DNA from: Pyropia yezoensis | Taxonomy: Eukaryota; Rhodophyta; Bangiophyceae; Bangiales; Bangiaceae | Direction: 5' to 3' | Assembly (NCBI GenBank): GCA_009829735.1 | Contig: CM020618.1 | Span: 16,167,346 to 16,231,345, forward strand | DNA length: 64,000 nucleotides | Part shown: positions 2,645 through 41,314 of the stretch, piece by piece | How the letters are laid out: each line of letters opens with the position of its first letter | How positions within the stretch are numbered: position 1 is the first letter of the stretch | Made by a program: the position numbers and the translations under genes | Notes under the pieces: model-generated | What the model was told of the DNA's origin: nothing | Seen by the model: the letters and a program-made list of their open reading frames with translations, nothing else | Databases searched by the model: none

Positions 2645-5092
2645 TCAGTGGGTAGACCCACTGCCCGAGGGAGGCCACTCACGCGTAAGCGCGTATACCT
2701 CCGTGCTCCACCGGTCGGCAATGTCACGACGGTCGACCACCCGAGTTACCTCGGTGCATAACTGGACGAGGGTGCTGCGGCCAGCCTCCACGTCCTCCAG
2801 AGCTTTCTGGAGGCGGTCCAGCACGCCACCAAAGCAACGCGCTGACCCAACCAGCGCAGCACCTGGGGGGATATCCCCCCAGCTAACAGAGAGACCCCCA
2901 CGCATTGCGCGGGTAACAAGGGCGTCAACGCCTTCATACCAGAGACGGGGACCCCCGTCATGTAGGACAGGGGCGGGAGGTGACACTGGCGCAGCCAGAG
3001 GAGCCACAGGAGCCGACACGGCTACCACCGGAGCCGGTGACACCTGATACGAGGCCCGGTAGGACCCTACCGAAGGGGCTCCACCGTAACCACGGCGGTA
3101 ATCCGCCCGACGACGGGACACCTCACGCTCCCCACCCGCAGAGCCCCACTCTCGGGGACGACGGCCAACCGCCGCAGGCATCGGGTTACCGAACCACGGA
3201 GCAAGGACCTGAAGAGGGTCATGGATAACCATGGGAATACCCAGGTCAGGAACGGCCTCGGTGGACGCCCACCCATGGCAACTAGGCTCACCCGGCTGAG
3301 TACGCCGGACACGCAACGAGTGACGAGGCAAGGGGGAAGCCCCAGCCTGCGGGTCCCGGTACGGGGGAAGGGCCAACACCCCAGCCCAGTTCACGGCATC
3401 GTGAACAGCCAGCAGGGCCTCGAACTCCCGGGCCAACCCGGTCTTGGCGGCTATCAGATCCACGCCCAACTGCGCGATGTGCCGACGGACACCCGTCGGA
3501 AGATGAAACAGACGACCCTGCCGGCGGACGGACAGCAAGAAGGATGAAGCCTGCCCGAGGGTAACCTCAAGGGTGAAGGTACCCTGCAACGGGTGGACCG
3601 GCCGGGAGGCCAACACACTCCCGAAGTATCGGAGGCAGGAGCCGGTGTCGAACCGGAAAGCAGGGGCGGGTTCCCACCCCTCCTGCCATAGCGGCGGGCG
3701 CACGGGAGTGTATACCGGAGCACGACCGTTGCCGGTCTGCAACGCACACGTTATATCCGTGCGGAACGCATCCGCCATGACACCATGGTTACGTCGCCAA
3801 CTCGACGCCGACTTCAACCCCGCCATGGGCGGGTAGGGAGCCGTCAACGACAGATACGGGGGTACCCCCGGGTAGTAGTCAAAGTCGGGATACCGACCGG
3901 TACGGCTCACCGTCTCCCCAAACGCAACCGGCTCCGCCGCCGCCGCAATCCCCCGAGCACTAGCCGGGTAGTCAATCTCCCGCGGCAACGCGGGGGCAAT
4001 CAAGTCGCAGACCCCGAAGTTGGGGTCGAGGTAGACCTCACCCCGTCCCACCCGGGTGCGCCAGAGCTGCGCATGCCGGTCGTCCGGCTGACTCAGGATC
4101 CAATGGTGTTCCACCCGGACCGCGTTCGGCTGGTTGACCAGCCGCACCAACTCCCGCTCCCAGCACGGGTCCACCTTGACGCGCCGGGAGGATTCTCCAC
4201 GGGGATGCACCAGGTGGAAGTCCACCCGCATACGCCCATCGGACTCCATCGACTCTTGCACCGTGAGGCCTCGAACCCGAGCCACCAAGTCGGACACCGA
4301 CATGGCGGGTTGACCCGCCGCCACGGCGACGCCGCCACCCAACGGGGCAACCCGGGCAGGACCAGGAAGAATCGGGGGCGCCGGGGGACGCACCACCGGC
4401 AGAGGGGCCGACGTCGGAGATGGACGAGGCCGAGGAGGAAGAAGAAGGGCGGGCGCCCGCCCGGAGTAACTCCCGGTGTCAACCGCCATGGGAGAAGGAG
4501 CGTCTTGACCGCTCGACGCCCGCGGCACCGCAGGTACGGCACCGGCGCCGGCACCACCCGTCGGCGTAGCCCCCGCCTCGGAAGTGGAAGGCGCTGGGAC
4601 AGCCTCCGGAGCCGGAGCCCCGGCCGTGCGGACACCCGCACCGTCTTGACCCACCGCACCGGGGGTCGCACCGCCACCACCACCCGCGTCAACGTCGGGA
4701 CCACCTCGAGGAGTCACCGCCCGGACACCCGGACCACCTTGACCAGCCGGAGTCGGCTGCGGGTCGCCACCTCCGCCGCGGGGCGGACCATCTTGAGGTA
4801 CCTGCGGTGAGCCGGCATCGGCACCAGGCCCCATCCGGGCAGCCGGCAGAGAGGGGGTAGAAGCCGCCACGCGCGGTTGACCGCCGGGTTGACCTCCGGC
4901 CGACGGCACCGTCGTGCCGCTGCACACGGACGACAGTCCTCCGGCCGACAGACGGACGGACACCGCAGGCCCGTCGTCGTCAGACGAGCTCACCCCGTAA
5001 CGCGCAGCGTCGGGACCGACAGGCGCGTCGTCCTCCATCTCCTCCCCGATCAGGAGGTCTTCCTCCTCTTCAAGCACCTGGGGATAGGACAT
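2645..5092 (-). CDS. Antisense retrotransposon protein, family A (aORF-A copy 1)
   Basis: An 815-residue frame on the strand opposite to pol, lying between pol and the 3' LTR. The chosen ATG at 5092 opens an acidic N-terminus (MSYPQVLEEEEDLLIGEEME); the open frame extends further upstream without another likely start. The first ~350 residues are Pro/Gly/Ala-rich and low-complexity; the next ~450 are a well-mixed, probably globular domain with motifs GVPPYLSL, RPPLWQEGWEP, LRYFGSVLASRP and VRRQGRLFHLP. These motifs align with the antisense frames of families B and C. Copy 2 keeps the frame through a strongly diverged N-terminus but has one stop (near 62360). Function unknown; I recognise no enzyme motif. 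It could be a regulatory, Gag-like or Env-like accessory protein. Confidence 0.75.
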   Translation of the reverse strand: MSYPQVLEEEEDLLIGEEMEDDAPVGPDAARYGVSSSDDDGPAVSVRLSAGGLSSVCSGTTVPSAGGQPGGQPRVAASTPSLPAARMGPGADAGSPQVPQDGPPRGGGGDPQPTPAGQGGPGVRAVTPRGGPDVDAGGGGGATPGAVGQDGAGVRTAGAPAPEAVPAPSTSEAGATPTGGAGAGAVPAVPRASSGQDAPSPMAVDTGSYSGRAPALLLPPRPRPSPTSAPLPVVRPPAPPILPGPARVAPLGGGVAVAAGQPAMSVSDLVARVRGLTVQESMESDGRMRVDFHLVHPRGESSRRVKVDPCWERELVRLVNQPNAVRVEHHWILSQPDDRHAQLWRTRVGRGEVYLDPNFGVCDLIAPALPREIDYPASARGIAAAAEPVAFGETVSRTGRYPDFDYYPGVPPYLSLTAPYPPMAGLKSASSWRRNHGVMADAFRTDITCALQTGNGRAPVYTPVRPPLWQEGWEPAPAFRFDTGSCLRYFGSVLASRPVHPLQGTFTLEVTLGQASSFLLSVRRQGRLFHLPTGVRRHIAQLGVDLIAAKTGLAREFEALLAVHDAVNWAGVLALPPYRDPQAGASPLPRHSLRVRRTQPGEPSCHGWASTEAVPDLGIPMVIHDPLQVLAPWFGNPMPAAVGRRPREWGSAGGEREVSRRRADYRRGYGGAPSVGSYRASYQVSPAPVVAVSAPVAPLAAPVSPPAPVLHDGGPRLWYEGVDALVTRAMRGGLSVSWGDIPPGAALVGSARCFGGVLDRLQKALEDVEAGRSTLVQLCTEVTRVVDRRDIADRWSTEVYALTREWPPSGSGSTH

Positions 5093-5666
5093 GATAACGG
5101 GTGCGGAGTCCCCCGCGCCCACAAGCCGTCGACGGCTACAACCCGGTACGGTGGGATAACCGGGACGAGCCAGGGAAGCGCGGACACCCGCGCTTATGAC
5201 CACAAACGGCCACGAGAAGCGCCGCAGGCACGCGGGTCGACCCGCGCCCCACGGGGCTACGACCGCGCTCCACCCAGGCACCTGGGCGGGACGGGGCCAC
5301 ACCCACACACGGGGTAAGTAAGGGGGGTCACCCCCAACCGCCCCCACGCAACGCGGGCAGCCCCCGCCCCCCACTCAATCGTCCACACGAGAGGGGCCCC
5401 CCTACCACCAGGCACCTGGTGGCGGATCCGCTTGCACCACCCCTCGGAAAGGGGGGGCGTGAACAGCAACCCGCATCGGGAATTTAACGGTCCGGAAAAC
5501 GGATCGTGTGTGTGTACCACGCAAAGGGGGGCACCGCCCTGAGACAACCTCGAAAAGGGGTGTCTGTCGCGACGGGGCGCAAAGCCCCACCCGACGGGTA
5601 AACGGTCACGCGACCCACTTACATTCGGTAACCCGAATGCAACTCGACCCGAGGACGGGCCGAATC
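5093..5666. other. Leader between 3' LTR and antisense frame of family A copy 1
   Basis: About 570 bp, GC-rich, without a credible gene. The minus-strand open frame runs part-way into it (to about 5374) but has no better ATG. It should contain the start site and 5' leader of any antisense transcript. No TATA box is evident on the minus strand. Confidence 0.4.
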
Positions 5667-5679
5667 TAAGGGGGGGATA
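5667..5679 (+). other. Polypurine tract of family A copy 1
   Basis: The sequence TAAGGGGGGGATA directly precedes the LTR start TGTAGCAATATGG. A purine run touching the 3' LTR is where plus-strand DNA synthesis is primed in LTR retrotransposons. Confidence 0.8.
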
Positions 5680-6042
5680 TGTAGCAATATGGTTGTCCGT
5701 ATTGTGACCCTAATATTAGGGGGGCTACTTCTAATCCTTAACTTTCAATTTGAGAGTCCGTACTGGTCACGGTATCTATAAGTTACGTATGACCAGAGGG
5801 ACTTGCATCTTGGGGTGGAGGGTAGTTAGTAGTGTCTCCGAGGGTTTATAACGAGGGGGCCGGTGGCGAATCCACCGCCGGCCAAGGTAGAACAACAAAC
5901 CCCTCCCATTTGGGCTCCCATCTTGGTCCCGTGGCTTGCGCTCCAAGGACAGCAACCTTGGCCTCCCGGTGACGTTGGTGCCGATCCCCCTTGGTGAGTG
6001 TTCCCTGAGAGTGGACGCGCGACGGATCCCTATTGTGCTACA
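5680..6042 (+). repeat. 3' LTR of family A copy 1
   Basis: A 363-bp LTR beginning TGTAGCAATATGG and ending TTGTGCTACA, so the tips TGTAGCA/TGCTACA are inverted repeats. It is closely similar to the solo LTR at 29111-29473 and the 5' LTR at 47332-47695. The short open frame that crosses its right edge (5936-6304) is a chance fusion of LTR sequence to the interrupted family B pol tail. Confidence 0.92.
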
Positions 6043-6415: not shown

Positions 6416-8359
6416 CTAGGCACGCATGCTAGACTCTCCCACTCCACGGCCCTCGCCCTCACGTGGAGGCGAGCGGCGAGACCCACGCCGATAACGGTCT
6501 CCACTTGTTGAAGGGGGCGGCGGCTCCAAGTCGGAACGGTCGCGCCCCTCACGGTCGCGCAAGTGGCGCCGACCGTGGCCACTCTTCTGCCTGGTCTTGC
6601 GCGCAAGTTTGCGACGCAGACGCTGGACAGACTCCGTCTCCGACGGGGTAGAGGACTCCGAAACGGAGTAAGACAACTCGTCTTCCGATACGGAAGGAGA
6701 GCGCCGCGAGTGTCGGCGACGACGGCGAGGAGGCGAGTATGCCCGGCTCGCGCGACGCTTGCCACGCCCAAGTGGGGCTGGCTGGGGCATGATAGCCCCA
6801 ATGCGAGCCAACTCGGCTGTCATAAACTCCGCCACCGACTCGCAACTCGCGGTCGCCACTGCAGTACGAACGCGCTCCTCAAGTTGAGGAGTCTCGGAAC
6901 TCTGTAGGGTTGCGGTCGACGCGGCCAACCAGGAAATGGTGCGCACCAACGTGGTGATCATCATCTCTGAGGTTAGAGGCGTGGGCGGCAACACCAACTT
7001 GGGGTATACCGTCAGGAGGGTGGCCCCCAAGTTGGGGGACACCGGGGTGGAAGACTCCACGGCCACGCTGATCGGGATGTTCCCGTGAGGTTGGAAAGAA
7101 ACAGGAGGAAGCGGAGGGGCCCGCCGAGGTGGCGGTACCCGGGTGTAACTGCGACCCCGACTTGGGGCCCCCGCAGTGGGTTGAGTCATATGGTCATCAT
7201 AGGACGGCACGGCCATAACTATGGGCTTGTCCGGGGGTGGCGCAGTGTGGCGATCCACCCCCGGGGCATACGGGTAGTCCCCGATGCCCAATCCCTCTCG
7301 TAGGACCACACGGCCGTCGTGAAGTTCACGAGCGACCCACACGAACTGGCGAAGTGCGCCATCGTCCTTGGGCCCACGAGTGGGGCGGCGCAACTTGTGC
7401 TCAATGCTCTCCCACTCGATAAACTTATGGAGCCGGAGCATCTCCTCAAGTAGAGTGAGTTGTCCTGATGAGCGCCCCTCAGCAACTAGCTGAGGGGTGA
7501 GCTGTTCCAAACCTTGGAGGAGCCGGAGGGGGAGATGTCAGAGCATCCCCCGCCGCTGAACACAGGACACCCAGGTCGACATGACCTCGAGGAGCCACTG
7601 GGTGGCCAACATGGCCCACACCAGGTGATCAGGGGCAGCCGTCAACATGACGGAGCCGAAGTGGTCAAGCAACCGTGGCAACAACGCCGGGAACCCGTAG
7701 GGGACCTCAACTTGTGGCCACCACTCGGGCTTCTTCGGATAGTACTGCTCCTTACTGGCAGCAGACTGTTGAGGAATCTCAAGTTGAGCCGAGGTCACAA
7801 AGTAGGGACCTCGCCGGAAGTCTTTCTCCATCCGCACATCAAAGTGATGAGTGTGCGGATCGGCCTCGTGGAGGTACGGTGGGCGAGTTGCCACAGCGTC
7901 CCACGTGAAGGTCGGCAAGTCGCCGGGACCCGGGATAGTTCCCCCGCGGTCCACCATGGCCTTGGCACGCTGAACGTCCTCAACCTCCTCATCGTCCAGG
8001 AAGGCAAACTGGTCCGTCCTGAAGCCGGCAGGGAACCCGACCCTACGGGGATACTTCTCCCGTAGGCGGTCCCATACCCGGCCCATCGCTGCGCCAAGTC
8101 GGCCACAGCGAAGAACAGTCAGCCCCTCCTCATAGAGAGGCCAAGCGGGGTAAAACCACCGCCCCAAGGCCTCACGCGGGACAACTTGTCCCGCCTCCGG
8201 GGGAGACCCCGCCGTCAACCCAAAGCCGGGTGACGCGGGAGTCCCGTGCCCCGGAGCGATCGCGGAGCCCCCGCCGGAAGTCCCGGCGGGTGCTGCCCCG
8301 TAGGAGGTGTCCTCCATGCGCTCGTCAAGAGAGTCCGTCTCCACTCCCGGAGTCGCCAT
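6416..8359 (-). CDS. Antisense retrotransposon protein, family B (aORF-B copy 1), with in-frame TGA
   Basis: A minus-strand frame between pol and the 3' LTR, 647 codons from the ATG at 8359, which sits in a strong GCCATGG context. One TGA interrupts it at 7538-7540. The downstream part has no ATG at its head (the next usable start there is TTG), and the amino-acid match with aORF-A runs straight through the stop, so this is one gene with an in-frame TGA rather than two genes. The 5' half has PPYL, the YPKKPEWWPQ segment and HFGSV motifs; the 3' half has an Arg/Ser-rich tail. The matching frame at 39371-41314 has the same TGA. Either the source element was already mutant or the TGA is read through. 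Confidence 0.7.
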
Positions 8360-8697: not shown

Positions 8698-9166
8698 TGT
8701 GGCAGTATTGACCCCCAGGTAGGGGGGCAACACGTGCCATGCAAGGGGCGGCAGGCCACTAGCCTGATCCGTTCCTCCCCCTGCATTTGGGTCCATATTC
8801 CCTAAGTTTGGGATAGTTAGCTTAGTAGTAAATCCAACTTGGATTTGAGGGTTTTCTGCATTTATCGTCTTGAATTTTCGTGTGGCCCGGTGGGCAGGTG
8901 CTGGGGTGGGAGATTCTGAGTGGCGAGATTCTGAGTGGACCCTGGGGGGATAAGGGGAGGGACAGCGGGGCTTGGCCCTGCGTCCCCGTCCCGACCAAGA
9001 AACTGTTGGACCACACACCATCTTCTTGTTTGTCCGTGGGGGGTTTGCCCCACAACAGGGACAGAGTGTGTGCGACTTGCACTTCTTCCGGTTCCCCCGA
9101 CACGGGAGGCAGCCCTAGCACACCGCCCCAACTTGGGTGCCGTGTGTGCTTGTGGTTTTTGCCACA
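8698..9166 (+). repeat. 3' LTR of family B copy 1
   Basis: A 469-bp LTR beginning TGTGGCAGTATTG and ending TTTTTGCCACA (inverted tips TGTGGCA/TGCCACA), nearly identical to the LTRs at 32745-33213 and 41653-42121. The 5 bp after it are CTGAC; the partner duplication is outside the window. Confidence 0.93.
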
Positions 9167-16008: not shown

Positions 16009-16579
16009 TGTGGTATAAAACTCGATCCTCTCAGACACGTGTCAATATCCCTCGGGGGAAAGGGACAGGTAACACAGAAAGGGGAACTACGAGAATGGTA
16101 TGCCTGTTGCCTCACGTGCCTGCTCGCAGAGCAAACAGATACGCACGGTAGTGCACACGGGGAAGAGGAAAGCAAACGCGCAGTTGTCTTTTTCCTGAGG
16201 GCGCGGGCCAAGGGCGCCTCGCTGTCCCTCTTAACGTGCATCTGGGGGAGCCTCGGCACGTTGGCCAGGTAGCCCCCCCATAACCCCGAGTGGCCCCGAC
16301 CCGAGTCTAACCTCGTCAGGTCGGGGGCCACTATCACTACTAATTCTATTCCCACTCACTAATCTCACACTCAAATTCTCTCAAATCAAGTCCCTCACAA
16401 GTATGCAAAAACCCATCAGCAATCCCTCTCTCACGTGTGGATAGCGTAGTCCACCGCATCCCAGTGCCGGGCACGGGCCACGGCCGCCAACCATCACCAC
16501 ACGGCGGGCGTGTTCTGGCACCTGGTGCCCTCTGGTTGTAGTCCCGGGTCGGCGCCAAGTCGGGGCCAGGGATGCTACA
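16009..16579 (-). repeat. 3' LTR of family C (inner end tentative)
   Basis: On the minus strand the LTR begins TGTAGCATCCCTGG directly after the purine tract, resembling the family A tip. The far end is not proven because no second LTR exists in the window; TGTGGTATAAAAC at 16009 is the best candidate because it nearly mirrors the TGTAGCA tip. Confidence 0.45.
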
Positions 16580-16763: not shown

Positions 16764-18881
16764 ATGTCCAGTTCCGAGATCCAAGCTGGGCCCGTGGTTC
16801 CGGCGGCGAGTGTTGCGGAGGAGAACTCGGGTAGTCGCGCCCCTCTCCTGCCTCCGGTTCCTCGGGTGTCGATGTCGGCGCCGGTCGCCACGGCGGGGAC
16901 GGATCGGGTTCCCCCGGCTTCTGTGATGCACCCGGTCGAGACCCCCCCGGTGGGTCTCCCGGAGATGCTTCTTGGGCAGGACCCTCTGGCGGCCCGGCGT
17001 TACTCCACGGTGGTCGGCAACGCCGGCGCGGCCCAGTGCCAGCAGGATTGCTTGGACCTCTGGCGCAAGGAACTCCAGCGCGGGGTCCTGACCGAGATGG
17101 ATAAGGCTCGTCTTCACACGGCGGACCAGATGCGCCTGGCACAAGACCGCTCCCAGAGCTTCTCGGGTTCCTCTTGGGTTGCTCATCTGGAGGATCTCCC
17201 CTTCGCGCTGGTGCTGGATCTACCCTTGACCGAGCGTCGCGTGCCCGCGTCCGTTCTCCGGTGGCCGGAGGAGGAAGAGTACGTCCACCGGGCGCTCAAG
17301 GTCTGGGACGAGGCGCTCAAGGGGTCGGGGAGCCTGAACTGCGACCCCCGTCCGAGCATGGTCGCTCTGGAGCCGCCTTTCCTGACCCGGATGTACTCCA
17401 AGTTGTCACCGGCACGGGAGCAAGGCGAGCGACGCGGCCGCCAGCGTGACTTCCTCGTGAGCTGCAACCATCAGGAGGTCTGGAAGCTGGATAAGGCTAA
17501 CCGGGCGGCGTACTACCCCAAGGTCATCCCGCAGCAGCAGGAAGTCGAGATCCCGGTCGGGTTTGCTCCTTCCAGCATCCCCTTCACCTGGTACTTCTTG
17601 GACGCCTTGACTCAGGCGTCGATCAAGGGCTTCTTCCACTCGATCCCGTACATGATGTACACGTCCGAGATGACAGTCTTGGCGGCCAGCCACTGGCTTC
17701 ACGAGGTCTTGGTGTCCAACCGGCTTTGGTTTCTCTCTGACCTCCTGATGGTCTGGATTGTCGACAAGTTGACCGTCGACTTCCTGTGCAGCCAGGACGA
17801 AGAGTACAAGGGGCTCTTCCAGGCGATGATTGACTTCTGGCGTCTGGTGCCGGTGCATGACCGGAACTTCTTGAACGCGATTGCCGATCAGAACCGCCCG
17901 CGTCGGGATGGCTTCGGTTGGGCGCAGGTGGTCTACCAGTCTTCTCCGGCCAAGGTGCAGCTGGCGACGCCGCTTCCGGCGTGGCCGCAGCTAGGTAGCT
18001 TTCCTGCCCCGGCCGCCCTTGATCTTCTGCCAGTTGGGCCGCCGGTGCAGGAGTCGGGATGGGCCGCGGCGGTCGGTCAGGCGTCTGCGGCGGCTCCGCT
18101 TCCTCCTGTTGCACCTGTCGCCCCGGTGGCCTCGCCTGAACCGTCGCCGGCGCGTTCACGCCCTGTTCCGGCTGTGCCGGTACTTCAAGCTCCTCCGGCA
18201 CCGCGCCTGTCTGCGGCGAGTCTGGGGGTGACCGTGCGGTCGCCTACCACTCCGGCCGCTCCGCCTCGGACGCCTTCTTCCAACGCCGGTGGCGCTGTGC
18301 CTCCGCTGGAGTTGGGTACTCCGGTTTCGGGGGCTGTTGTGGACCGTCCGGTGGTGTCATCCTCGGGGCGGTTCGAGATTCCGGCGCCGACTCTGCGCCT
18401 TACCCGCTTCCGGGTGCGTGACTGGTACCTGATCCAAGGTGGTCCGACATGCGACCAGTACGACGTCGGTATGATTGAAGACCAGCTGGGTCGTCTTCCG
18501 GTGCAGGTTGAAGGCGTTGGGTCCTCCCTGGTGCTGGGTACTTACGCCAGCGTCTTGAACAACGTGGTCGACCGGGTGTTTGCTTGCGCGGACAGCGGCC
18601 AGATGTCGAACAACCCGGTGGTTGGCGAACTTCTGGCGACCTTGACGCGGCATGGCTTGGCCCAGCAGTGGTCAGAAACCTTCACTGGCTTCCAGGGGCG
18701 CCGACGGGCATATCTGGATGAGCGGGAGCCCCCGGCAACTACCGGTACTACTCCGATGGCGTCATACCGGGATGCACCGCGTCCACCGCACTACGTCATC
18801 CCGTCTTCCTCCGGTTCCCGTCGTGCCGCGGAGGCAGCGCTGGAGGACACTCCCGCGGCTCAGCGTCCGCGCCGGGAGTAG
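16764..18881 (+). CDS. Antisense retrotransposon protein, family C (aORF-C)
   Basis: A fully open 705-codon frame opposite to the family C pol and convergent with it (145 bp between stops). The ATG at 16764 (MSSSEIQAGPVVPAAS) is chosen because the 64 upstream codons do not look like protein. Residues ~1-60 and ~410-540 are Pro/Ala-rich; the two mixed domains are ~75-405 and ~540-650. Motifs LEPPFLTR, AAYYPKVIPQQQEVEIPVGF, LAASHWLHEVL and RPRRDGFGWAQ align with family B and A antisense proteins. The leader between LTR and ATG is pyrimidine-rich with no TATA box. No catalytic motif is recognised. The length is similar to aORF-B and this is the best-preserved member for functional work. Confidence 0.78.
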   Translation: MSSSEIQAGPVVPAASVAEENSGSRAPLLPPVPRVSMSAPVATAGTDRVPPASVMHPVETPPVGLPEMLLGQDPLAARRYSTVVGNAGAAQCQQDCLDLWRKELQRGVLTEMDKARLHTADQMRLAQDRSQSFSGSSWVAHLEDLPFALVLDLPLTERRVPASVLRWPEEEEYVHRALKVWDEALKGSGSLNCDPRPSMVALEPPFLTRMYSKLSPAREQGERRGRQRDFLVSCNHQEVWKLDKANRAAYYPKVIPQQQEVEIPVGFAPSSIPFTWYFLDALTQASIKGFFHSIPYMMYTSEMTVLAASHWLHEVLVSNRLWFLSDLLMVWIVDKLTVDFLCSQDEEYKGLFQAMIDFWRLVPVHDRNFLNAIADQNRPRRDGFGWAQVVYQSSPAKVQLATPLPAWPQLGSFPAPAALDLLPVGPPVQESGWAAAVGQASAAAPLPPVAPVAPVASPEPSPARSRPVPAVPVLQAPPAPRLSAASLGVTVRSPTTPAAPPRTPSSNAGGAVPPLELGTPVSGAVVDRPVVSSSGRFEIPAPTLRLTRFRVRDWYLIQGGPTCDQYDVGMIEDQLGRLPVQVEGVGSSLVLGTYASVLNNVVDRVFACADSGQMSNNPVVGELLATLTRHGLAQQWSETFTGFQGRRRAYLDEREPPATTGTTPMASYRDAPRPPHYVIPSSSGSRRAAEAALEDTPAAQRPRRE

Positions 18882-21885: not shown

Positions 21886-22083
21886 GGGGGGGGGGCGCGA
21901 GCCCCCCAATCCCACCACCGCGGGGACGCACCCGAGGGGCGGGCGGGGGGCGGGCGGCGACGCCGCGCCTGCTCCGGCACCGTCGCCGCCAAAGTCGTCT
22001 GTGGCGACGGTGGGGGGTGGCGGCGGTGGGAGCCACGCGGGGGAAGCCCCTCGCCAGACGACCGCGACTCACACTACGGCCCG
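21886..22083. other. G-rich junction between family C and the Crinkler-like gene
   Basis: A 200-bp GC-rich stretch with a run of G near 21890 and no coding match to either neighbour. It contains the breakpoint of the truncated retrotransposon and probably the 3' end of the minus-strand Crinkler-like gene. Confidence 0.5.
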
Positions 22084-31462: not shown

Positions 31463-32110
31463 GGTACCTCACGGCAGGCTGCGCCCCCCGCGCTAACATG
31501 TAGAGGCTGCCGGAGGTGACCTTGAGCAGGTCCTGTGTCTTGGCGTGCACCGACAGAGCGCACTCGTACTCCTTTTCTTGCTTGTTGGCTGAGTAGTTCC
31601 ACACCGCGTGTTGGCGGCGGCCGCCGTCGCACGCGCCAACCGCGCCCGCTCGACCAGCACTAAGGCAGCGCACAGGGACGCCGCCAAGACGCGCGCGCGT
31701 GCTGAAATGCAGTGGGCTGCAGGGTTGTGGCGCTGCGCTGCGGGGCGACTCGCACACAGGCCATGGGAGGGGAGGGGCGCGCTCGGCGCGGCGGGGGACG
31801 CGCTGGCCGGCGAAGTGCAACGCGTACGTCTCGGAACCAGAGCGGTCCGCTGACAAAGAATCCAACAGGCCACAGCACACCTCGAATTTTCACACTCGCC
31901 AAACACCCGGTTGAGCCAGTCTTGTCAATTTCTGAGGCGTATGAGAGCGGGCCCCTGAGGCCCGTTCGCAGTTCGCGTACCGTCACGTGTGACGACGGTA
32001 TAAACGGTATAAAAGCTGCGAAAGAAATTGGACAGGGCCGCTGTACACAGAATACCAAGTACATAAGTATCTTCCTCATTCTCAAGATATCTTCAGATGG
32101 ACACACACAA
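31463..32110. other. Unassigned stretch upstream of the Harbinger-like fragment
   Basis: GC-rich to about 31850, then lower GC. A minus-strand peptide around 31500-31620 (HAVWNYSANKQEKEYECALS) looks protein-like and could be a zinc-finger remnant, but I cannot assign it. Confidence 0.3.
32008..32015 (+). promoter_or_regulatory. TATA-box candidate before the Harbinger-like frame
   Basis: TATAAAAG about 100 bp upstream of the first ATG (32111) of the Harbinger-like frame. Confidence 0.35.
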
Positions 32111-32744
32111 ATGAGTGTGACCAGAAGAGCGGGGTGTGTGTGCAGCCCTGCCCAAGTTGGATGCCACCGGAGACCATCCGCCGTCCACGGCGCGGCAAAC
32201 AGCATCATGGTCCCCACTCCTATCTGGCGTGCGGGTGCGAATGTGACTTCTGTAGCTGGCGCCCTACATGCCCGCTGTGGTATTCTCTCGGACCCCTTTC
32301 AATACACTTCTGTACCTTTTCCTTTTTCCCACGTCCGGGCTCGCTACGGCGCCCTCCTTCCACGCTCTGTGCGCATGTCCAAGAGCACTTTCCACGGCCT
32401 GGTCGATGTCCTGCGCCCTTGCTTGCCGCGTCAAGGCTTCTCGGCGGAGAATCGTGCGGCTATGGCCCTGCGCTACTTGGGCAGCGGTAGCTGCATGGAC
32501 ATTTGCGCGGCGTTCGGAGCGCATCCAGCCACTTTGTACCGCGCCTTGTGGGACGTTGTGGACGTTGTGGACGCTGTGAACCCTACCCCTGCCCGGCGCA
32601 TCTGCGCGTGCGACCCGTTGAGTGACAAATTTCAATGGCAGCACCCTGGCATGAGAGTCGTCTCGAGAAAGTTCAATCCTGAACGCAATTGGATAGCTGC
32701 AAGTCTTGAGCTCCACAGTGTATGCCGCGGTTTACCGCGGTATA
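32111..32744 (+). pseudogene. PIF/Harbinger-like transposase, N-terminal fragment
   Basis: The frame contains RYGALLPRSVRMSKSTFHGL, the phrase RAAMALRYLGSGSCMDICAA and FGAHPATLYRALWDVVD, the order and spacing typical of the N-terminal helical domain of PIF/Harbinger (HARBI1-like) transposases. The DDE catalytic part is not present: the family B 5' LTR begins at 32745, and the sequence that resumes at 42122 does not restore it. Starts at 32111 or 32207 are possible. A domesticated gene cannot be excluded, but the truncation makes a dead fragment more likely. Confidence 0.55.
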
Positions 32745-33213
32745 TGTGGCAGTATTGACCCCCAGGTAGGGGGGCAACACGTGCCATGCAAGGGGCGGCA
32801 GGCCACTAGCCTGATCCGTTCCTCCCCCTGCATTTGGGTCCATATTCCCTAAGTTTGGGATAGTTAGCTTAGTAGTAAATCCAACTTGGATTTGAGGGTT
32901 TTCTGCATTTATCGTCTTGAATTTTCGTGTGGCCCGGTGGGCAGGTGCTGGGGTGGGAGATTCTGAGTGGCGAGATTCTGAGTGGAACCTGGGGGGATAA
33001 GGGGAGGGACAGCGGGGCTTGGCCCTGCGTCCCCGTCCCGACCAAGAAACTGTTGGACCACACACCATCCTCTTGTTTGTCCGTGGGGGGTTTGCCCCAC
33101 AGCAGGGACAGAGTGTGTGCGACTTGCACTTCTTCCGGTTCCCCCGACACGGGAGGCCGCCCTAGCACACCGCCCCAACTCGGGTGCCGTGTGTGCTTGT
33201 GGTTTTTGCCTTA
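32745..33213 (+). repeat. 5' LTR of family B copy 2
   Basis: 469 bp, TGTGGCAGTATTG start; the last bases read GCCTTA instead of GCCACA in the 3' LTR. Other differences from the 3' LTR are single bases. Confidence 0.95.
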
Positions 33214-33215
33214 TT

Positions 33216-33231
33216 TGGTGGAGCAGCAGGG
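33216..33231 (+). other. Primer-binding site of family B
   Basis: TGGTGGAGCAGCAGGG just inside the 5' LTR begins with the TGG expected from a tRNA CCA end. The same 16 bases follow the family A 5' LTR (47697-47712). I cannot name the tRNA. Confidence 0.7.
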
Positions 33232-33332
33232 AACAGAGGTAAACTTTACCTCCGGGTGCACCCGGGTGTAGGGGGCCCTCTGTCTCAGAGGAACGGTGGT
33301 CTTGGACCGTGTCATACGGATCGTCAGCCAAC

Positions 33333-35279
33333 ATGGCTAGCTCGGACCCCCCGTCGTCCGGGGAGTACACGGGTGACGCACGTACTTCAGTGCCTTTGAA
33401 TACTGGTGAGACACAAGTGGGTTTACCTGGGGTCGCAGAGGGACTAGAGGTCCCTCAAGCCAGCAGGACTGGAAGTGCCGGCGGGCTACAGGCCACCCCG
33501 ACTCAGTCGGGAGTTCACTCGGGTGACACTTCTGATGTGGGTGGGCCGAAGTCTGGCCACCGTGTGGTATACTCAACGGGAACGTCCCAAGGGGTGAGGA
33601 CTGTCCCCGCGGGTTCCACTCGGGTTGGAGCCAACTTTGGCTTGGAGCCGTCGCCAACTAGGCTTTCGGAGGACGGCGGACCTCCGTTGGTCGGTGATGG
33701 GCTCGCGCCCAGGCCCCCGGTTGAGACCCCTGAGGAACGTGGTTACCCCTCAGGTGGACTCCCGGAGGCGGACCGAGACTCAACTGGAGTCGTCAATCCC
33801 CTCCTCGCGGAAACTGTCCGTCGGGAGGCGACCAATGTGTTGCGGCAGACTTTGCCGGACCTGGTGGTCACGATGACGAATACCATTTTGAATCAGATTG
33901 TGGCGAGTTTGCCAGATGGCCTTAATGTCCAGACCGGATTGGGGCTTTCGAGCCCACAGGCGCAGGGGGAATCTCTCCTGACGCCTACCTCGGGTCGCCC
34001 CGAACTGGGGGCGACACCTGTGACTTCCAACGAGGGAGCCACACCGTACGCGGTGGGGCGTACGCCCTTCACGGGGGAGTTCCCCTCGGAAACGCCGGCG
34101 GCTACACCAAGCTCGCCGTACCAGACTACAGGCACTGAGGGTGGACTTACCCCAGTGCCACAGCGGCTGTTCCCTCAACGTGAGGTGCCGCCCAAGATTC
34201 AGGTAACCAACCCGGTCTACCAGCGGATCTTTGACTGTGAGACCTACGCCCTCCACAACAAGTCGGTGGCGTATGCTCCTGACCAGGCCCGAGCTATGGG
34301 CCGTGCCAAGAAGAATGCACTTCATTCTTTTGGGCACAGAGCGGAGTGGGATGGAACTCCCCCCCTCCGTGTCTTTGAGTTCCTACGTCGTTTCACTAAA
34401 GCCTGTGACGACAATGCCATAAGTGAAGGCATGGCTTTTTACATGCTACAGGAGTTTACGAAGGGCGACCTACGGACAGAACTTATGTCCGTCATGCCCA
34501 GCTCCTCAAGTGGAGGCGCTGGGGAGGTGACGTCCTATTTGGAGCTCGTCAACTGGTTGTTCAGAGCCATGGTTGATGAGGCAGCGTTAGCTTCTCAAGT
34601 CGAGGAGTTTACGCAAGCCCATCAGGAAGAGGCGGAGGACGAGTTGTCCTTTGCGGAGCGAGTCCGTAAGCTCAACAATCTTTGTGGGTTTCTTCATCCA
34701 CAAGCTGTGGTGAAGAGTCGGTTTGTGGAGGGACTCCATTGGTCAGTCCGGATGGAGACCCGGGAGCATAACACTGCCCGGGCGACCCTGGCCGAGTTGG
34801 CCAGGTTCGCCTATCGTAGAGGCGAGGCCTACCGCAAGTTGCGGGAGGAACAACGCCAGGAGCGTCAGGCCGAGTTGGCCAAGGAACGGGAGGAGGCGCG
34901 CCAAGCCAGAGAGTTGAGAGAGGCACGCCGAATCCGCAAGGAGAGGGTGGTAGCTGCCGTGGGAACTTCCCAGGGTACCTCTTCGTCTTCCCCAGTTGGG
35001 AAGACCCCTCCGGGAACTGACCATCGGTGTTGGAACTGCAACTCCGATGGACACTGGGCATATGACTGCCCCAAGTTGAGTAAACGCATCCAACAACTTG
35101 TTAGGAATGCGAGTAAGAAGTCGGCTACGAGCGAAGTACGTTCACGCCGCGAGGGTGGGTCTCGACCGGTCGTCGCGGTCGCCACACCCTCGGCGGAGGA
35201 GGCGGACACGTCGTCCTCGGACTCGTCGTCTTCCTCCCCGCCCTCAGATTCGGACGCCAAGTCGGCGGGAAACGAATGA
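33333..35279 (+). CDS. gag: Gag polyprotein, family B
   Basis: 648 codons from the ATG at 33333 (AACATGG context), the first good start after the primer site. Residues ~1-290 are Gly/Thr/Pro-rich; ~295-520 match the retrotransposon Gag capsid region (RVFEFLRRFTKACDDNAISE, FVEGLHWSV); then a charged coiled-coil-like stretch rich in R, E and A; then a CCHC zinc knuckle (CWNCNSDGHWAYDC) and a Ser/Asp-rich acidic end. It forms the virus-like particle and binds RNA. The stop TGA overlaps the first pol ATG, and a slippery heptamer sits just upstream. No breaks are seen. Confidence 0.92.
   Translation: MASSDPPSSGEYTGDARTSVPLNTGETQVGLPGVAEGLEVPQASRTGSAGGLQATPTQSGVHSGDTSDVGGPKSGHRVVYSTGTSQGVRTVPAGSTRVGANFGLEPSPTRLSEDGGPPLVGDGLAPRPPVETPEERGYPSGGLPEADRDSTGVVNPLLAETVRREATNVLRQTLPDLVVTMTNTILNQIVASLPDGLNVQTGLGLSSPQAQGESLLTPTSGRPELGATPVTSNEGATPYAVGRTPFTGEFPSETPAATPSSPYQTTGTEGGLTPVPQRLFPQREVPPKIQVTNPVYQRIFDCETYALHNKSVAYAPDQARAMGRAKKNALHSFGHRAEWDGTPPLRVFEFLRRFTKACDDNAISEGMAFYMLQEFTKGDLRTELMSVMPSSSSGGAGEVTSYLELVNWLFRAMVDEAALASQVEEFTQAHQEEAEDELSFAERVRKLNNLCGFLHPQAVVKSRFVEGLHWSVRMETREHNTARATLAELARFAYRRGEAYRKLREEQRQERQAELAKEREEARQARELREARRIRKERVVAAVGTSQGTSSSSPVGKTPPGTDHRCWNCNSDGHWAYDCPKLSKRIQQLVRNASKKSATSEVRSRREGGSRPVVAVATPSAEEADTSSSDSSSSSPPSDSDAKSAGNE
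35267..35273 (+). promoter_or_regulatory. -1 ribosomal frameshift heptamer, family B gag-pol
   Basis: G GGA AAC in the gag reading phase, followed by GAA TGA. It fits the X XXY YYZ rule, and pol lies exactly in the -1 frame. The same heptamer stands at the family A gag-pol junction. A possible short stem (TGGCCG at 35290 with CGGCCA at 35319) lies downstream. The ATGA stop/start overlap at 35276-35279 offers re-initiation as an alternative. Confidence 0.65.
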
Positions 35280-38200
35280 CCGTTGGAGCTGGCCGTCCGA
35301 AGATCACAACGGCAGCCTCGGCCAAGTGGGCCAGGAGGACGAACCAACCGTGCCGGATACTGCGGCGACGTAAGGGAGTCCGCCCACCTCGGGTAGGACT
35401 CCCCAAGAACGTAAACCCACGTCGGGTCATCGCGGTGCTGACGGGTGAGAACTTCCAGGTGGCTGGACGGGTGCAACTTGCCCCCGGCCGCGCCTGTTGT
35501 GCCCGTATCGTGCTTGATACCGGGTCAGGAGCCTCCTTGATACGCAAGTCGCTATTACCAAAGGAGGTGAAGCTCCAACGCTGGAGGTCCAAGGCTGACC
35601 ATATGATTGACATCAATGGTGGGGTACTTCCCATCGTTGGTGCCGTGACCCTACCAACTAGGTTGGGGACCCATGAGGTCGACGTGACCTATGGTGTAGT
35701 TGAGAACATATCGGTACCCCTGCTTCTGGGTACCCCTTATGTCGTAACACAAGTGCCTTTGATCTGTGGCCCTGAGTACTGGGTCAAGTTGATGAATGGG
35801 GAGACTATCCCCATCCTTGATAAGGGAAAGTCTGTGGCTCCTGTGACAGTCTCACAGTCGAAGCCTGTTTGTTCGGTGAGGGAAGGGATTACTGCTACCC
35901 TGCGTTTAGCCCGCAAAGTCACGTTGCCCCCCAACTCGGTGGCGCACGTTGATGTTGTAACTGATTTTTCGGGGAACGGGTTGGTGCACCCTTACCCCCG
36001 TCTTGCTCGCAAGCACCAAGTGCATGTTGCCCTTGGCACGATGGACTCCAAAGCCGGAGTCCCGTGGAGGATCCAGGTGATGAACCTGAGCCCGACGCCC
36101 AAGTACTTCAAGTCGGGAGCCAAGTTCGTCTATATCGACCAACACGAGGGACCGGTAGTAGCGGTCACCCTCAACGCGGGCGCAAGTAGCGACCCGAAGT
36201 CCGGAAAGGAGAAGCATCAAGCCAAGTCTGCCGCCTCTCCTCGACCCCATGTGAACATGGAGGGTGTCCCCCCCAGGTTGAGGGTTCAAGTTGAACGCCT
36301 CTTGGACCAACATCTCAAGTTGTGGGATGGTCAATTGGGACTTATGAGAGCCACCCAACACCGGATCGAGTTGAAGCCCGGTGCACCCCCTATACGCCAA
36401 CAACCGTATAGGGGAGGACCTCGTTCAAGGGCCCTCGTTAAGGAGCAAGTTGCTCGCATGAAGGCCCTCGATGTGATCGAGGCCAGCAACGCCGAGTGGG
36501 CGAGTCCGGTGGTTATCGTCCCCAAAGTTGATGGGACCCCCCGGTTTTGTATCGACTACCGTAAGCTCAACGAGAGCACGGTGAAGGACAGTTATCCCCT
36601 ACCTAGGATGAATGACTGTCTGGACTCTCTGGGGGAGGCAAACGTGTTCTCTACCCTGGACTGTAACGCGGGGTACTGGCAACTTCCCTTTGCCCCGGAG
36701 GACAGGCATAAAACTACCTTTACCTGTCACTGTGGTACCTACCAGTGCAAGCGCCTACCGTTTGGTCTGTGTAACGCGCCGGCAACTTTCCAGCGCGCTA
36801 TGGACATGATTCTGGCCGGAGTACGGTGGCAGATCTGTCTTGTGTACCTAGACGATATCATTGTGTTCTCCCGAAGTCCGGAGGAACACATTGGCCATCT
36901 TGGCCAGGTGTTCAAGCTACTTGCTGACGCCGGTGTGTCACTGAAGGCGAGTAAGTGCCACCTCTTCACTCAAGAGGTGGAATACTTGGGACATGTTGTC
37001 CGTCCGGGGCGTCTCAGTGTTAACGAGAAGAACTTGAGGGCCATACGTAAGGCTCAGTACCCCCGGACCCAGACCCAGATGAGGAGCTTCCTCGGGATGT
37101 GTAACGTGTACCGACGTTTCACCAAGGGCTTCGCCAAGGTGGCGAAGCCGTTGAATGAGCTAGTGAGCTCAACGCTACCGAAGAACCTACCTCCCCCAAG
37201 TCGGGTGGAGCAGGAATCCTTTGAGACTCTTCGGGACCTTCTGCTGAAGCCCCCCATCTTGGCTATTCCCAGGTTGGGAGGCCACTACATCCTGGATGTG
37301 GACGCTAGCTACGACCAACTTGGTTGTGTGTTGCTTCAGCAGCAGCCGGACAAGGAGTACTTGCCGGTGGGATACTTTAGTAAGGGGCTGAACTCGGCCG
37401 AGAAGAACTACGGAGTCACCGAGTTGGAAGGACTCGCAGTGGTGTGGGCGGTGACGTCACTTCGTCACTACCTGGAGGGTGAGAAGTTCCTCATCCGCTG
37501 TGACCACCGCGCGTTGCAGTTCATCTTTAAGACGGACTGTACGAACACTCGTCTCAACCGGTGGAGGGTGCGACTGGCACCCTTCAACTTTGACATTGAG
37601 TACCGACCTGGCAGGCAACATGCCCTTGCCGACGGCCTCTCTCGGGTACCTACCGAGGGGCTGGACACTAACCCAGTCGATGAGGACATCCCCATCGTGG
37701 GGGTAGTCACGCGCTCGGGTCAGGCGTTGAACCCCGAGGCGCCAGGGAACAAGAAGTACTTGCCCCTGTCCCTGGACGAGGTGGTGAAGGCCCAGGCCGA
37801 GGATCCCTTCTGCAAGTCGCAGAGGGATATACTGGATACGGTGGTTGAGACGCGCTTCTTTCTGGGAGACGATGGCCTCCTCATGAGGAGGGGGGTATTC
37901 CAGGGGACCGAACAACTTGTCGTCCCCGCATCCCTCAAGGACAGTATCCTTGAGAGGGAGCACAACGCTCCCACGGGTGGACACCTGGGGTCTAGTAAAC
38001 TGTACCAGACCCTGAGGACCAGGTACTACTGGCCGTCCATGGTGGTGGACATCTACAGTTGGGTGGCTGCCTGAACAAGTTGTGCTCAGAATCGTCTGAT
38101 GGAACGGCGGCCTAGTACGGCTATGCTATTGTTCCCGGCCAAGGAGCCCTTCGCCGCGTTGGCGATGGACATCCTTGGGCCACTGCCCGTGACCGAGGAG

Positions 38201-39259
38201 GGCAACCAGTACCTCCTGGTCATCTGTGACCGCTTCACGAAACTTACGCGAGCGATCCCACTGGCAGAGATCACGGCCATGTCGGTCGTGTCAGCCTTCC
38301 TAGATCACTGGGTTGCCGCGTATGGCATCCCAGATAGTACACTATCGGACAATGGACCGCAATTTGCGTCTGTACTGTTTCAGGGAGTGCTGGATATGTT
38401 GGGGGTTAAGGCAAACTATGCCACCCCCTACCACCCACAAACTAATGGGCAGGTGGAGCGCTTCAACAAAACTATTGTTAGGCAGCTACGCCACTATGTG
38501 AGTGAGCACGTAAAGACGTGAGACCAATACATTTCTATCCTTACTACTGCCTACAATTCGCAGGTTCACTCATCTACAGGGGAAGTACCCCTCGCTTTTG
38601 TGACCCCCCGTCGCGTGCGGTCTATTGCCGTGCGGCGGTCGCTCCCAACTAGGGAGGATGGTGGCAGTACGCCTACTCCTACTGAGAGTAAGGCGGAGTT
38701 CGCCGCTAGGCTTGAAAACCTCATCCCTGAAGTCAGGGCTGAGATGGACAAAGCACAAAAGCGCTACAAGCGTACCTTTGACAAAAAGGTGCTCAATGCT
38801 AAACATGTCCCCGAGCAGGGTGACTGGGTGCTGGTACACTCGCACACCCCAACTGGGGGTAAGCTGGTATTCCAGACGAAGGGACCGTACCAGGTCCTTC
38901 GTACTGATGGGCGGCGCTTCACCATCGAAAGTGACGATGGGGTCCGCACAGTGAACGCACAGGACGTGGTCAAAGTTGCACCACCGCCTGCAGGAGACCC
39001 AGCTTGGGCGCGTGCGTTGGAATCGTGGCGCCTCCCCTCACTGCCTGCGGCCAAACAGGGCCCACAGGAGTACGTGTTCGATAAGTTCATCGACCACGGA
39101 TGGGATGAAGACACTGACCGCCTCATGTTGAGGGTGCGTTGGTTTGGCTACAAAGCCAAGGATGATACGTGGGAGTATGTGGAGGACCTTCCCGCTGAGA
39201 AGGTCCGGGCGTACTGTGCCCGGAATGAGATAGACCCTAACAGCCCTCCCTCAACGTGA
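35276..39259 (+). pseudogene. pol: Pol polyprotein, family B, with two in-frame TGA codons
   Basis: One reading frame carries protease (VLDTGSGASL, D at ~81), reverse transcriptase (FCIDYRKLNESTVKD, YLDD at ~524-527), RNase H (YILDVDASYDQLGC, RCDHRALQFIF), integrase (HHCC finger, then AMDILGPLP, LSDNGPQF, NGQVERFNKT) and a chromodomain (EYVFDKFIDHGW). Two TGA codons interrupt it: at 38072-38074, where family A and C integrases have the first Cys of the zinc-finger CxxC, and at 38519-38521, where they have Trp. The frame is otherwise unbroken to the final TGA. The simplest reading is two nonsense substitutions that inactivate this copy. Gag-Pol is predicted to arise by -1 frameshifting. Confidence 0.92.
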
Positions 39260-39370
39260 GGGAAGGCCGAGCAACAGTGCCAAGAGAGTGCTTCAAGTCG
39301 AAGTGGTACGCAGAGTGGCTTTTAACTACAGCCCTAACCCTCACACTCTCACAACAAAGGCAGCTGCCAA
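39260..39370. other. Convergent spacer of family B copy 2
   Basis: About 110 bp between the pol stop and the antisense stop. It is shared with copy 1 (6305-6415). No clear processing signal is seen. Confidence 0.4.
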
Positions 39371-41314
39371 CTAGGCACGCATGCTAGACTCTCCCACTCC
39401 ACGGCCCTCGCCCTCACGTGGAGGCGAGCGGCGAGACCCACGCCGATAGCGGTCTCCACTTGTTGGAGGGGGCGGCGGCTCCAAGTCGGAACCGTCGCGT
39501 CCCTCACGGTCGCGCAAGTGGCGCCGACCGTGGCCACTCTTCTGCCTGGTCTTGCGCGCAAGTTTGCGACGCAGACGCTGGACAGACTCCGTCTCCGACG
39601 GGGTAGAGGACTCCGAAACGGAGTAAGACAACTCGTCTTCCGATACGGAAGGAGAGCGCCGCGAGTGTCGGCGACGACGGCGAGGAGGCGAGTATGCCCG
39701 GCTCGCGCGACGTTTGCCACGCCCAAGTGGGGCTGGCTGGGGCATAATAGCCCCAATGCGAGCCAACTCGACTGTCATAAACTCCGCCACCGACTCGCAA
39801 CTCGCGGTCGCCACTGCAGTACGAACGCGCTCCTCAAGTTGAGGAGTCTCGGAACTCTGTAGGGTTGCGGTCGACGCGCCCAACCAGGAAATGGTGCGCA
39901 CCAACGTGGTGATCATCATCTCTGAGGTTAGAGGCGTGGGCGGTAACACGAACTTGGGGTATACCGTCAGGAGGGTGGCCCCCAAGTTGGGGGACACCGG
40001 GGTGGAAGAATCCACGGCCACGCTGATCGGGATGTTCCCGTGAGGTTGGAAAGAAACAGGAGGAAGCGGAGGGGCCCGCCGAGGTGGCGGTACCCGGGTG
40101 TAACTGCGACCCCGACTTGGGGCCCCCGCAGTGGGTTGAGTCATATGGTCATCATAGGACGGCACGGCCATAACTATGGGCTTGTCCGGGGGTGGCGCAG
40201 TGTGGCGATCCACCCCCGGGGCATACGGGTAGTCCCCGATGCCCAACCCCTCTCGTAGGACCACACGGCCGTCGTGAAGTTCACGAGCGACCCACACGAA
40301 CTGGCGAAGTGCGCCATCGTCCTTGGGCCCACGAGTGGGGCGGCGCAACTTGTGCTCAATGCTCTCCCACTCGATAAACTTATGGAGCCGGAGCATCTCC
40401 TCAAGTAGAGTGAGTTGTCCTGATGAGCACCCCTCAGCAACTAGCTGAGGGGTGAGCTGTTCCAAACCTTGGAGGAGCCGCAGGGGGAGATGTCAGAGCA
40501 TCCCCCGCCGCTGAACACAGGACACCCAGGTCGACATGACCTCGAGGAGCCACTGGGTGGCCAACATGGCCCACACCAGGTGATCAGGGGCAGCCGTCAA
40601 CATGACGGAGCCGAAGTGGTTAAGCAACCGTGGCAACAACGCCGGGAACCCGTAGGGGACCGCAACTTGAGGCCACCACTCGGGCTTCTTCGGATAGTGC
40701 TGCTCCTTACTGGCAGCAGACTGTTGACGAAACTCAAGTTGAGCCGAGGTCACCAAGTAGGGACCTCGCCGGAAGTCTTTCTCCATCCGCACATCAAAGT
40801 GATGAGTGTGCGGATCGGCCTCGTGGAGGTACGGTGGGCGAGTTGCCACAGCGTCCCACGTGAGGGTCGGCAAGTCGCCGGGACCCGGGATAGTTCCCCC
40901 GCGGTCCACCATGGCCTTGGCACGCTGAACGTCCTCAACCTCCTCATCGTCCAGGAAGGCAAACTGGTCCGTCCTGAAGCCGGCAGGGAACCCGACCCTA
41001 CGGGGATACTTCTCCCGTAGGCGGTCCCATACCCGGCCCATCGCTGCGCCAAGTCGGCCACAGCGAAGAACAGTCAGCCCCTCCTCATAGAGAGGCCAAG
41101 CGGGGTAAAACCACCGCCCCAAGGCCTCACGCGGGACAACTTGTCCCGCCTCCGGGGGAGACCCCGCCGTCAACCCAAAGCCGGGTGACGCGGGAGTCCC
41201 GTCCCACGGAGCGATCGCGGAGCCCCCGCCGGAAGTCCCGGCGGGTGCTGCCCCGTAGGAGGTGTCCTCCATGCGCTCGTCAAGAGAGTCCGTCTCCACT
41301 CCCGGAGTCGCCAT
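39371..41314 (-). CDS. Antisense retrotransposon protein, family B (aORF-B copy 2), with in-frame TGA
   Basis: Same organisation as the copy at 6416-8359: ATG at 41314 in GCCATGG context, a TGA at 40493-40495, then an open frame to 39371. Residues just before the stop (VQRRGML) and after it (HLPLRLLQGLEQ) align with VRRQGRLFHLPTGVRRHIAQ of aORF-A, so the reading frame was once continuous. The 3' half after the stop has a segment RPTRGPKDDGALRQFVWVAR similar to family C and a C-terminal Arg/Ser-rich tail (RRRRRHSRRSPSVSEDELSY). About 10 of 330 residues in the 5' half differ from copy 1. Function unknown. Confidence 0.7.

What the first reader, a model, noticed from the sequence alone, without database searches (positions are those of the whole stretch)
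2645..41314. A conserved antisense-encoded protein family in three different Ty3/gypsy families
All three families have a long frame on the strand opposite to pol, between the pol stop and the 3' LTR: 2645-5092, 61895-64000, 6416-8359, 39371-41314 (minus) and 16764-18881 (plus, in the minus-strand family C). Seen directly: A LRYFGSVLASRPVHPLQG with B LNHFGSVMLTAAPDHLVW; B EQHYPKKPEWWPQVAVPYGF with C AAYYPKVIPQQQEVEIPVGF; B MLATQWLLEVM with C LAASHWLHEVL; PPYL/PPFL in all three. Known: some plant gypsy-type elements (such as Retand and Ogre relatives) and retroviruses such as HTLV-1 (HBZ) have antisense genes, but I know of no family with these motifs. Inference: an accessory protein made from an antisense transcript starting in or near the 3' LTR, possibly controlling expression, assembly or copy number through sense-antisense overlap.
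Basis: partly seen in the sequence, partly recalled or inferred. Interest (0 to 1): 0.92.

Follow-up and report, generated by a model that had tools for sequence, protein, structure and literature searches.

The report
Antisense gene in red-algal retrotransposons
Three families of jumping DNA in the nori seaweed carry a related, evolutionarily conserved gene written backwards on the opposite strand, whose protein belongs to no family we could find and probably helps the element control itself.

The parts
2645..5092 (-). A1 antisense gene, 815 aa
   Evidence: open frame; 55 genomic copies listed (capped list), 98-100% aa, stops inside in 2 of 55; pN/pS
61895..64000 (-). A2 antisense gene, about 10% diverged from A1, cut by the window end and interrupted by a stop at 62363-62365
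   Evidence: dN/dS A1 vs A2 0.39
39371..41314 (-). B1 antisense gene, in-frame stop at 40493-40495
   Evidence: genomic copies without the stop
6416..8359 (-). B2 antisense gene, in-frame stop at 7538-7540
16764..18881 (+). C antisense gene, 705 aa (element C lies on the minus strand)
   Evidence: 40 copies of its pol-side junction listed (capped list); pN/pS
1..2187 (+). A1 pol, cut by the window start (RNase H, integrase, C-terminal part)
   Evidence: Pfam
5680..6042 (+). A1 3' LTR (TGTAGC...GCTACA), polypurine tract just before
47332..47695 (+). A2 5' LTR, followed by primer-site-like TGGTGGAGCAGCAGGG
50070..53634 (+). A2 pol, interrupted between 53634 and 60887 by a stretch that holds a hAT transposase
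32745..33211 (+). B1 5' LTR (end approximate; target duplication GTATA)
33243..35279 (+). B1 gag (zinc knuckle)
35117..39255 (+). B1 pol frame, two in-frame stops, chromodomain-like end read by eye (end coordinate approximate)
41653..42121 (+). B1 3' LTR, 7 differing columns from the 5' LTR, gaps counted
8698..9166 (+). B2 3' LTR
19027..22068 (-). C pol (RT, RNase H, integrase, sub-threshold chromodomain)
   Evidence: Pfam
16579..16579 (-). C boundary between 3' LTR and polypurine tract, placed by likeness to A

Best explanation
These are real protein-coding accessory genes of Ty3/gypsy (chromovirus-like) elements in Pyropia yezoensis. They descend from one gene that sat antisense between pol and the 3' LTR before the three families split. 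SHOWN: position, homology (A-B and B-C), many copies, purifying selection. INFERRED: the gene is read from its own antisense mRNA, started in or just inside the 3' LTR (the ATG lies about 590, 340 and 185 bases from the LTR edge in A, B and C). The protein has a disordered-looking Pro/Ser/Gly-rich N-terminus, acidic in A and B; a conserved core of about 200 aa ending in predicted helices; a Pro-rich linker; and a C-terminal segment that in B ends in an Arg/Ser-rich tail with a bipartite nuclear-signal-like motif. I think it most likely acts in the nucleus on the element's own DNA, RNA or integration complex, as a regulatory accessory protein like those proposed for Grande and Retand.
For: Homology. 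Selection, copies chosen by neighbouring DNA and not by protein: A, 20 of 40 listed copies plus the window, shared variants 18 N: 32 S against about 113:49 expected, pN/pS 0.24, p=7e-7; C, 15 of 16 fetched copies (of 40 listed) plus the window, shared 8:16, 0.22, all variants 0.69 with p=0.003; B, the part outside the search query, 27 of 30 copies, shared 7:17, 0.17, p=3e-5. Singletons are nearer neutral in A and B, as expected for decay after insertion (Fisher p 0.007 and 0.001). Among the five other frames it is the mirror frame sharing third positions that falls clearly below 1 in shared variants (A 0.39, B 0.31, C 0.35); it holds 14, 11 and 11 stops in the stretches tested, so it cannot be the gene. 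A1 vs A2 dN/dS 0.39, core 0.31. GC by codon position in the cores resembles pol. B tail and NLS-like motif. Precedents: PMC7264820, PMC11963269.
Against: No transcript, promoter or protein evidence could be sought. Constraint is weaker than on pol (0.39 vs 0.07). A and C cores show no significant direct similarity, and the B tail resembles neither A nor C. A and C proteins have no run of 4 basic residues and no bipartite motif, so the nuclear signal is seen in B only. No family match hints at biochemistry. Both structure models are poor (mean pLDDT 36 and 40). The C core alone shows few shared variants and no constraint in them (4 N: 2 S, 0.89). Another non-mirror C frame also dipped a little in shared variants (0.68). 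Many copies are broken: 9 of 20 A stretches and 7 of 15 C stretches.
Confidence: 0.55

Rival explanations
1. The antisense RNA, not the protein, is what matters: overlap with the 3' end of the genomic RNA gives double-stranded RNA that feeds RNA interference and limits copy number.
For: The host has one Piwi-domain (Argonaute-like) match in an open 959-aa frame and a 643-aa frame with two RNase III domains, as in Dicer. PMC7264820 raises this idea for plants (passages).
Against: An RNA role does not predict amino-acid constraint, yet silent changes are in excess among shared variants in all three families, and amino-acid similarity persists between families whose pols have diverged to 53%.
Confidence: 0.12
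2. A structural or integration-complex protein (a second Gag-like or nucleocapsid-like product) packaged with the element.
For: Helices in the second half of the core in both (poor) models and a basic Arg/Ser-rich tail in B.
Confidence: 0.15
3. An envelope-like protein.
For: It sits between pol and the 3' LTR, where env genes lie.
Against: Opposite strand to pol; no strongly hydrophobic 19-residue stretch (best mean Kyte-Doolittle 1.58).
Confidence: 0.02
4. A passenger: a host gene or another transposon captured backwards in the ancestor, open by compositional luck and without function.
For: GC-rich DNA favours long chance frames (simulated mean longest frames 242-282 aa); no relatives outside the elements are known here.
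Against: Longest frames exceed 500 of 500 simulations in each region, purifying selection, retention in three families; a blastn scan for inverted repeats between the two flanks of each gene gave none in A and only 9-12 bp matches in B and C.
Confidence: 0.05
5. A countermeasure against host RNA silencing, needed because the element makes convergent transcripts.
For: RNAi-type genes are present; no DNA_methylase domain was found in the genome, so an anti-methylation role of the VANC kind (recalled) is unlikely.
Against: No sequence feature points to it.
Confidence: 0.08

Closest known systems
Retand elements of flowering plants with antisense TRP28 (PF04195) genes (PMC11963269; abstract, passages, the end of the section on structure and the Discussion seen)
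   Same: Ty3/gypsy; long frame antisense to gag-pol between pol and 3' LTR; found in 97% of the clusters studied there; proposed nucleic-acid-binding regulator.
   Different: PF04195 finds 0 candidates in this genome even at E 10 (none of its 14 control genomes is a plant). Retand is a non-chromovirus lineage of flowering plants with a pol-3' LTR region of 2.9-6.6 kb, here about 3.5 kb in A but only about 2.4 kb in B and C.
Grande gene23, RIRE2, PvRetro13 and Boty antisense aORF-3Rs (PMC7264820; passages and section 5 seen)
   Same: Same place and strand; Grande gene23 is reported to have its own promoter and a nuclear product.
   Different: Other hosts (plants, fungi).
CrREM1 of Chlamydomonas, ORF3p (recalled; original paper not among the 4 listed)
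   Same: Algal Ty3/gypsy with an inverse-orientation gene downstream of the polyprotein.
   Different: As recalled, ORF3p carries PHD-finger and chromodomains; no such Pfam match in these antisense proteins.
HTLV-1 HBZ (recalled, and named in PMC11963269)
   Same: Antisense accessory gene at the 3' end of an LTR element.
   Different: HBZ is a bZIP protein (recalled); no bZIP match here. Works-like comparison only.

Membership tests
Antisense additional ORF between pol and 3' LTR (aORF-3R) | frame antisense to gag-pol, between pol and 3' LTR | tested here: met
Antisense additional ORF between pol and 3' LTR (aORF-3R) | present in most copies of the family and conserved as protein | tested here: met
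   present beside the DNA-chosen junction in 20 of 20 A and 15 of 16 C stretches; free of stops and frameshifts in 11 of 20 A (500-codon stretch) and 8 of 15 C (645 codons); selection
Antisense additional ORF between pol and 3' LTR (aORF-3R) | transcribed antisense from its own promoter | not testable with these tools
   no transcript data
TRP28 / Retand antisense proteins (PF04195) | Transposase_28 domain | tested here: not met
   no hmmscan match; 0 candidates in the whole genome at E 10; no plant control was in that search, so its reach into distant relatives is unproven
TRP28 / Retand antisense proteins (PF04195) | host element of the Retand (non-chromovirus) lineage by RT tree | not tested
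   no RT tree built; chromodomain-like pol ends argue against
Ty3/gypsy LTR retrotransposon | RT - RNase H - integrase order between LTRs, gag with zinc knuckle | tested here: met
   B complete between LTRs with target duplication, gag zinc knuckle; A and C by pol domains
Chromovirus | chromodomain at the integrase C-terminus | tested here: inconclusive
   C: PF00385 20.1 bits, cut-off 25.1; A no match listed; the B end was read by eye only and not given to Pfam
HBZ-like antisense proteins | bZIP domain | tested here: not met
   no such Pfam match
Env-like proteins | sense orientation and transmembrane segment | tested here: not met

The most novel reading that the evidence does not exclude
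These are obligate ambisense retrotransposons: antisense transcription over the 3' third of the element exposes it to the host's Argonaute/Dicer-type pathway, and the protein made from that same RNA is the countermeasure, so that trigger and antidote lie on one transcript. That would be an RNAi-counteracting gene built into a family of algal LTR elements.
Probability: 0.07. Interest if true: 0.88.

Novelty: new variant of a known kind. Interest (0 to 1): 0.6.

Why it matters
Antisense genes at the 3' end of LTR elements are on record in flowering plants, fungi and retroviruses, mostly without a known function. Here a protein family with no relative that we could find appears in a red alga, kept across three element families with measurable constraint. 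If the proteins elsewhere are as unrelated as they look, elements have repeatedly acquired, and kept, a gene on the opposite strand at the same place, so the place itself (own promoter, independent of gag-pol) may be what is selected. It also gives a family with many young copies in a small, cultivable, three-chromosome genome, where antisense expression is easy to measure.

Tried and rejected
Relatives elsewhere: viral-contig scans with C, A and the alignment A1 and a genome-contig scan with A1 gave no relative; those collections hold viruses and prokaryotes, so this says little about other algae. PDB profile search gave one weak hit (E 0.015, 56 positions of a Gfo/Idh/MocA family protein), taken as chance. 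Pfam DUF6214 (E 0.023) and DUF641 (E 0.23), both under their cut-offs, rejected. Rfam: none in the window at the gathering threshold.

The first selection estimates were set aside: A (0.30) and B residues 1-273 (0.16) come from copies ranked by protein likeness, which favours silent changes. The A estimate was redone with copies chosen by spacer DNA; for B the part outside the query was used, though its copies were still drawn from the top of a protein-ranked list. Rows dropped: L023, L038, L047 of 30 in B, for low 20-mer sharing in that part; L082 of 16 in C, mostly not the element at that place. With L082 left in, C gave 0.88 for all and 0.37 for shared variants; with the three rows left in, the B part gave 0.88 and 0.51. 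My first count of open copies (12 of 20 A, 7 of 15 C) was corrected by alignment to 11 and 8: L059 has several small indels, and the L086 stretch had been cut one base off.

TRP28 kinship: spacing L-x-H-F-G-x7-P-D in B recalls positions L34, P46 and N47 printed in PMC11963269, but G21, P25 and F55 do not fit and PF04195 finds nothing; not claimed. Structure: two AlphaFold jobs gave mean pLDDT 36 and 40; no fold search was run on them.
Full report
WHERE THIS IS. The window lies in a 107.5-Mb assembly whose three large contigs are 43,592,136, 34,331,705 and 29,385,039 bases. They match the 43.6, 34.3 and 29.4 Mbp scaffolds reported for Pyropia yezoensis (PMC7423979, passages), a red alga with 65% GC and about 48% repeats, LTR elements foremost.

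ANATOMY. Family B is a complete insertion at 32745-42121: LTRs of about 467 and 469 bases with 7 differing columns (gaps counted), 5-bp target duplication GTATA, gag with a zinc knuckle, pol, then the antisense frame, a polypurine tract and the 3' LTR. The window copy of B pol has two in-frame stops. Family A is seen as A1 (1-6042, cut by the window start; 3' LTR 5680-6042) and A2 (from 47332 to beyond 64000, split between 53634 and 60887 by a stretch that holds a hAT transposase), plus a solo LTR at 29111-29479. A and B share the primer-site-like TGGTGGAGCAGCAGGG after the 5' LTR. Family C lies on the minus strand, seems broken off just upstream of RT, and has its LTR/polypurine boundary at 16579, placed by likeness to A. 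The three pols are 53% identical pairwise over the RT-RNase H-integrase stretch compared. Their ends look chromodomain-like by eye, but Pfam gives only a sub-threshold match in C (20.1 bits, cut-off 25.1), none in A, and the B end was not submitted.

IS THE FRAME REAL? In each family the pol-3' LTR region holds one long antisense frame: 815 aa in A, 705 in C, and about 647 aa from ATG in the B copy L027. Third-order Markov simulations never reached the longest frame (0 of 500 in each of three regions; simulated means 242-282 aa, maxima 508, 459 and, for C, 728 against 765 observed, so length alone is less telling in this GC-rich DNA than it looks). In the window both B copies have a stop after residue 273. 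A2 has a stop at 62363-62365.

IS IT CONSTRAINED? Variants were classed as silent or replacing against an expectation from the observed mutation types, with CpG kept apart. A, 20 copies chosen by identity of the 457-base spacer (every other row of the 40 listed), last 500 codons: all variants 86 N: 79 S (pN/pS 0.47), shared variants 18:32 (0.24), 1 stop against 4.7 expected; residues 317-601 0.36, residues 602-815 0.65. B, residues 274-647, outside the search query, 27 of 30 copies: all 96:61 (0.66), shared 7:17 (0.17). C, 16 of the 40 listed copies fetched, one dropped, plus the window: all 154:96 (0.69), shared 8:16 (0.22); by thirds the shared counts are small, and the core third shows no constraint (4:2). 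Binomial p for shared variants is 7e-7 (A) and 3e-5 (B); for C all variants 0.003. These p values treat variants as independent. Of the other five frames the mirror frame that shares third positions also falls in shared variants (A 0.39, B 0.31, C 0.35), but it holds 14, 11 and 11 stops there; one further C frame gave 0.68 with 14 stops; the rest are about 0.9 or more in shared variants. Singletons are closer to neutral than shared variants (Fisher p 0.007 in A, 0.001 in B), the pattern of a gene selected while elements replicate and free to decay afterwards. Copies do decay: 11 of 20 A stretches and 8 of 15 C stretches are free of stops and frameshifts. The older pair A1/A2 gives dN/dS 0.39 over 544 codons (0.47 in residues 1-260, 0.31 in 261-600, 0.59 in 56 codons beyond 600) against 0.07 for pol over 407 codons. 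Copy numbers are lower bounds from capped lists: 55 (A), 141 (B), 40 (C).

WHAT KIND OF PROTEIN? N-terminus low in hydrophobics and rich in Pro/Ser/Gly, acidic in A and B; core of about 200 aa with PP[YF]L, YYPK (B and C), GF (B and C) and FGSV (A and B) motifs; Pro-rich linker; C-terminal segment. B ends in an Arg/Ser-rich basic tail with a bipartite NLS-like motif; A and C show none. No transmembrane-like stretch (best mean Kyte-Doolittle 1.58) and no Cys/His cluster. No Pfam family above cut-off, no NCBIfam match, no convincing PDB relative, no similarity to the B gag. Two AlphaFold models are too poor to search with (pLDDT 36, 40), though both place a run of helices in the second half of the core.

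HOW IT MAY WORK. The gene cannot be read from the genomic RNA, so an antisense promoter in or near the 3' LTR is required (inference). Grande's gene23 is the model: own promoter, nuclear product (PMC7264820, passages). I favour a nuclear accessory protein acting on the element's DNA, RNA or integration complex. The host has an Argonaute-like gene and a Dicer-like pair of RNase III domains, so sense-antisense RNA could trigger silencing. That is a rival, and it also opens the reading that the protein counters silencing. No DNA_methylase domain was found (six-frame search, introns could hide one), which argues against an anti-methylation role.

NOVELTY. Antisense genes at this place are known in plants and fungi (PMC7264820 section 5; PMC11963269), so the arrangement is not new. 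TRP28 is not detectable here (no plant genome served as control). My literature searches (listings and abstract starts only) showed no account of an antisense gene in a red-algal element; subscription papers are largely missing from that library. Hence a new variant of a known kind.

Noticed in passing
43343-46629 (-): Two neighbouring frames with residues that recall a Fanzor/TnpB-type nuclease: 'VGVDTGRSDILTA' (RuvC-I-like) and 'DQDEFNTSQACPSC' (zinc-ribbon-like), with a sub-threshold Cas12f1-like_TNB match (E 0.035) and no NCBIfam match. The motif reading is recalled knowledge.
   Followed up: partly
54345-57005 (+), inside A2 between 53634 and 60887: hAT transposase (Dimer_Tnp_hAT, E 4.5e-6), open for 886 aa, within the stretch that interrupts A2 pol.
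   Followed up: partly
22084-24162 (-): 692-aa frame directly upstream of the broken start of C pol, with a P-loop-like N-terminus by eye; only sub-threshold STAND-NTPase and RsgA matches.
   Followed up: no
31706-32744 (+): Transposase-like frame (by eye) with a weak helix-turn-helix match (HTH_28, E 0.0044, under cut-off), cut by the B insertion; the frame stays open for a short way across the joined empty site.
   Followed up: partly
A 5650-5679 and C 16580-16610: By eye, the DNA next to the polypurine tract is alike in A and C (...CGTCCTCGGG... read in the antisense direction), a possible cis signal shared by both families.
   Followed up: no
30801-31464: Three tandem copies of about 220 bp in a stretch with strong GC skew (-0.34 over 28-32 kb).
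   Followed up: no
29111-29479: Solo LTR of family A with GCTACA/TGTAGC ends and what looks like a CCCGC target duplication.
   Followed up: partly
G000:C3:5004889-5005788 and C1:5448574-5449464: One Piwi-domain match and a frame with two RNase III domains: an RNAi-type pathway in the host, with no DNA_methylase domain found.
   Followed up: partly
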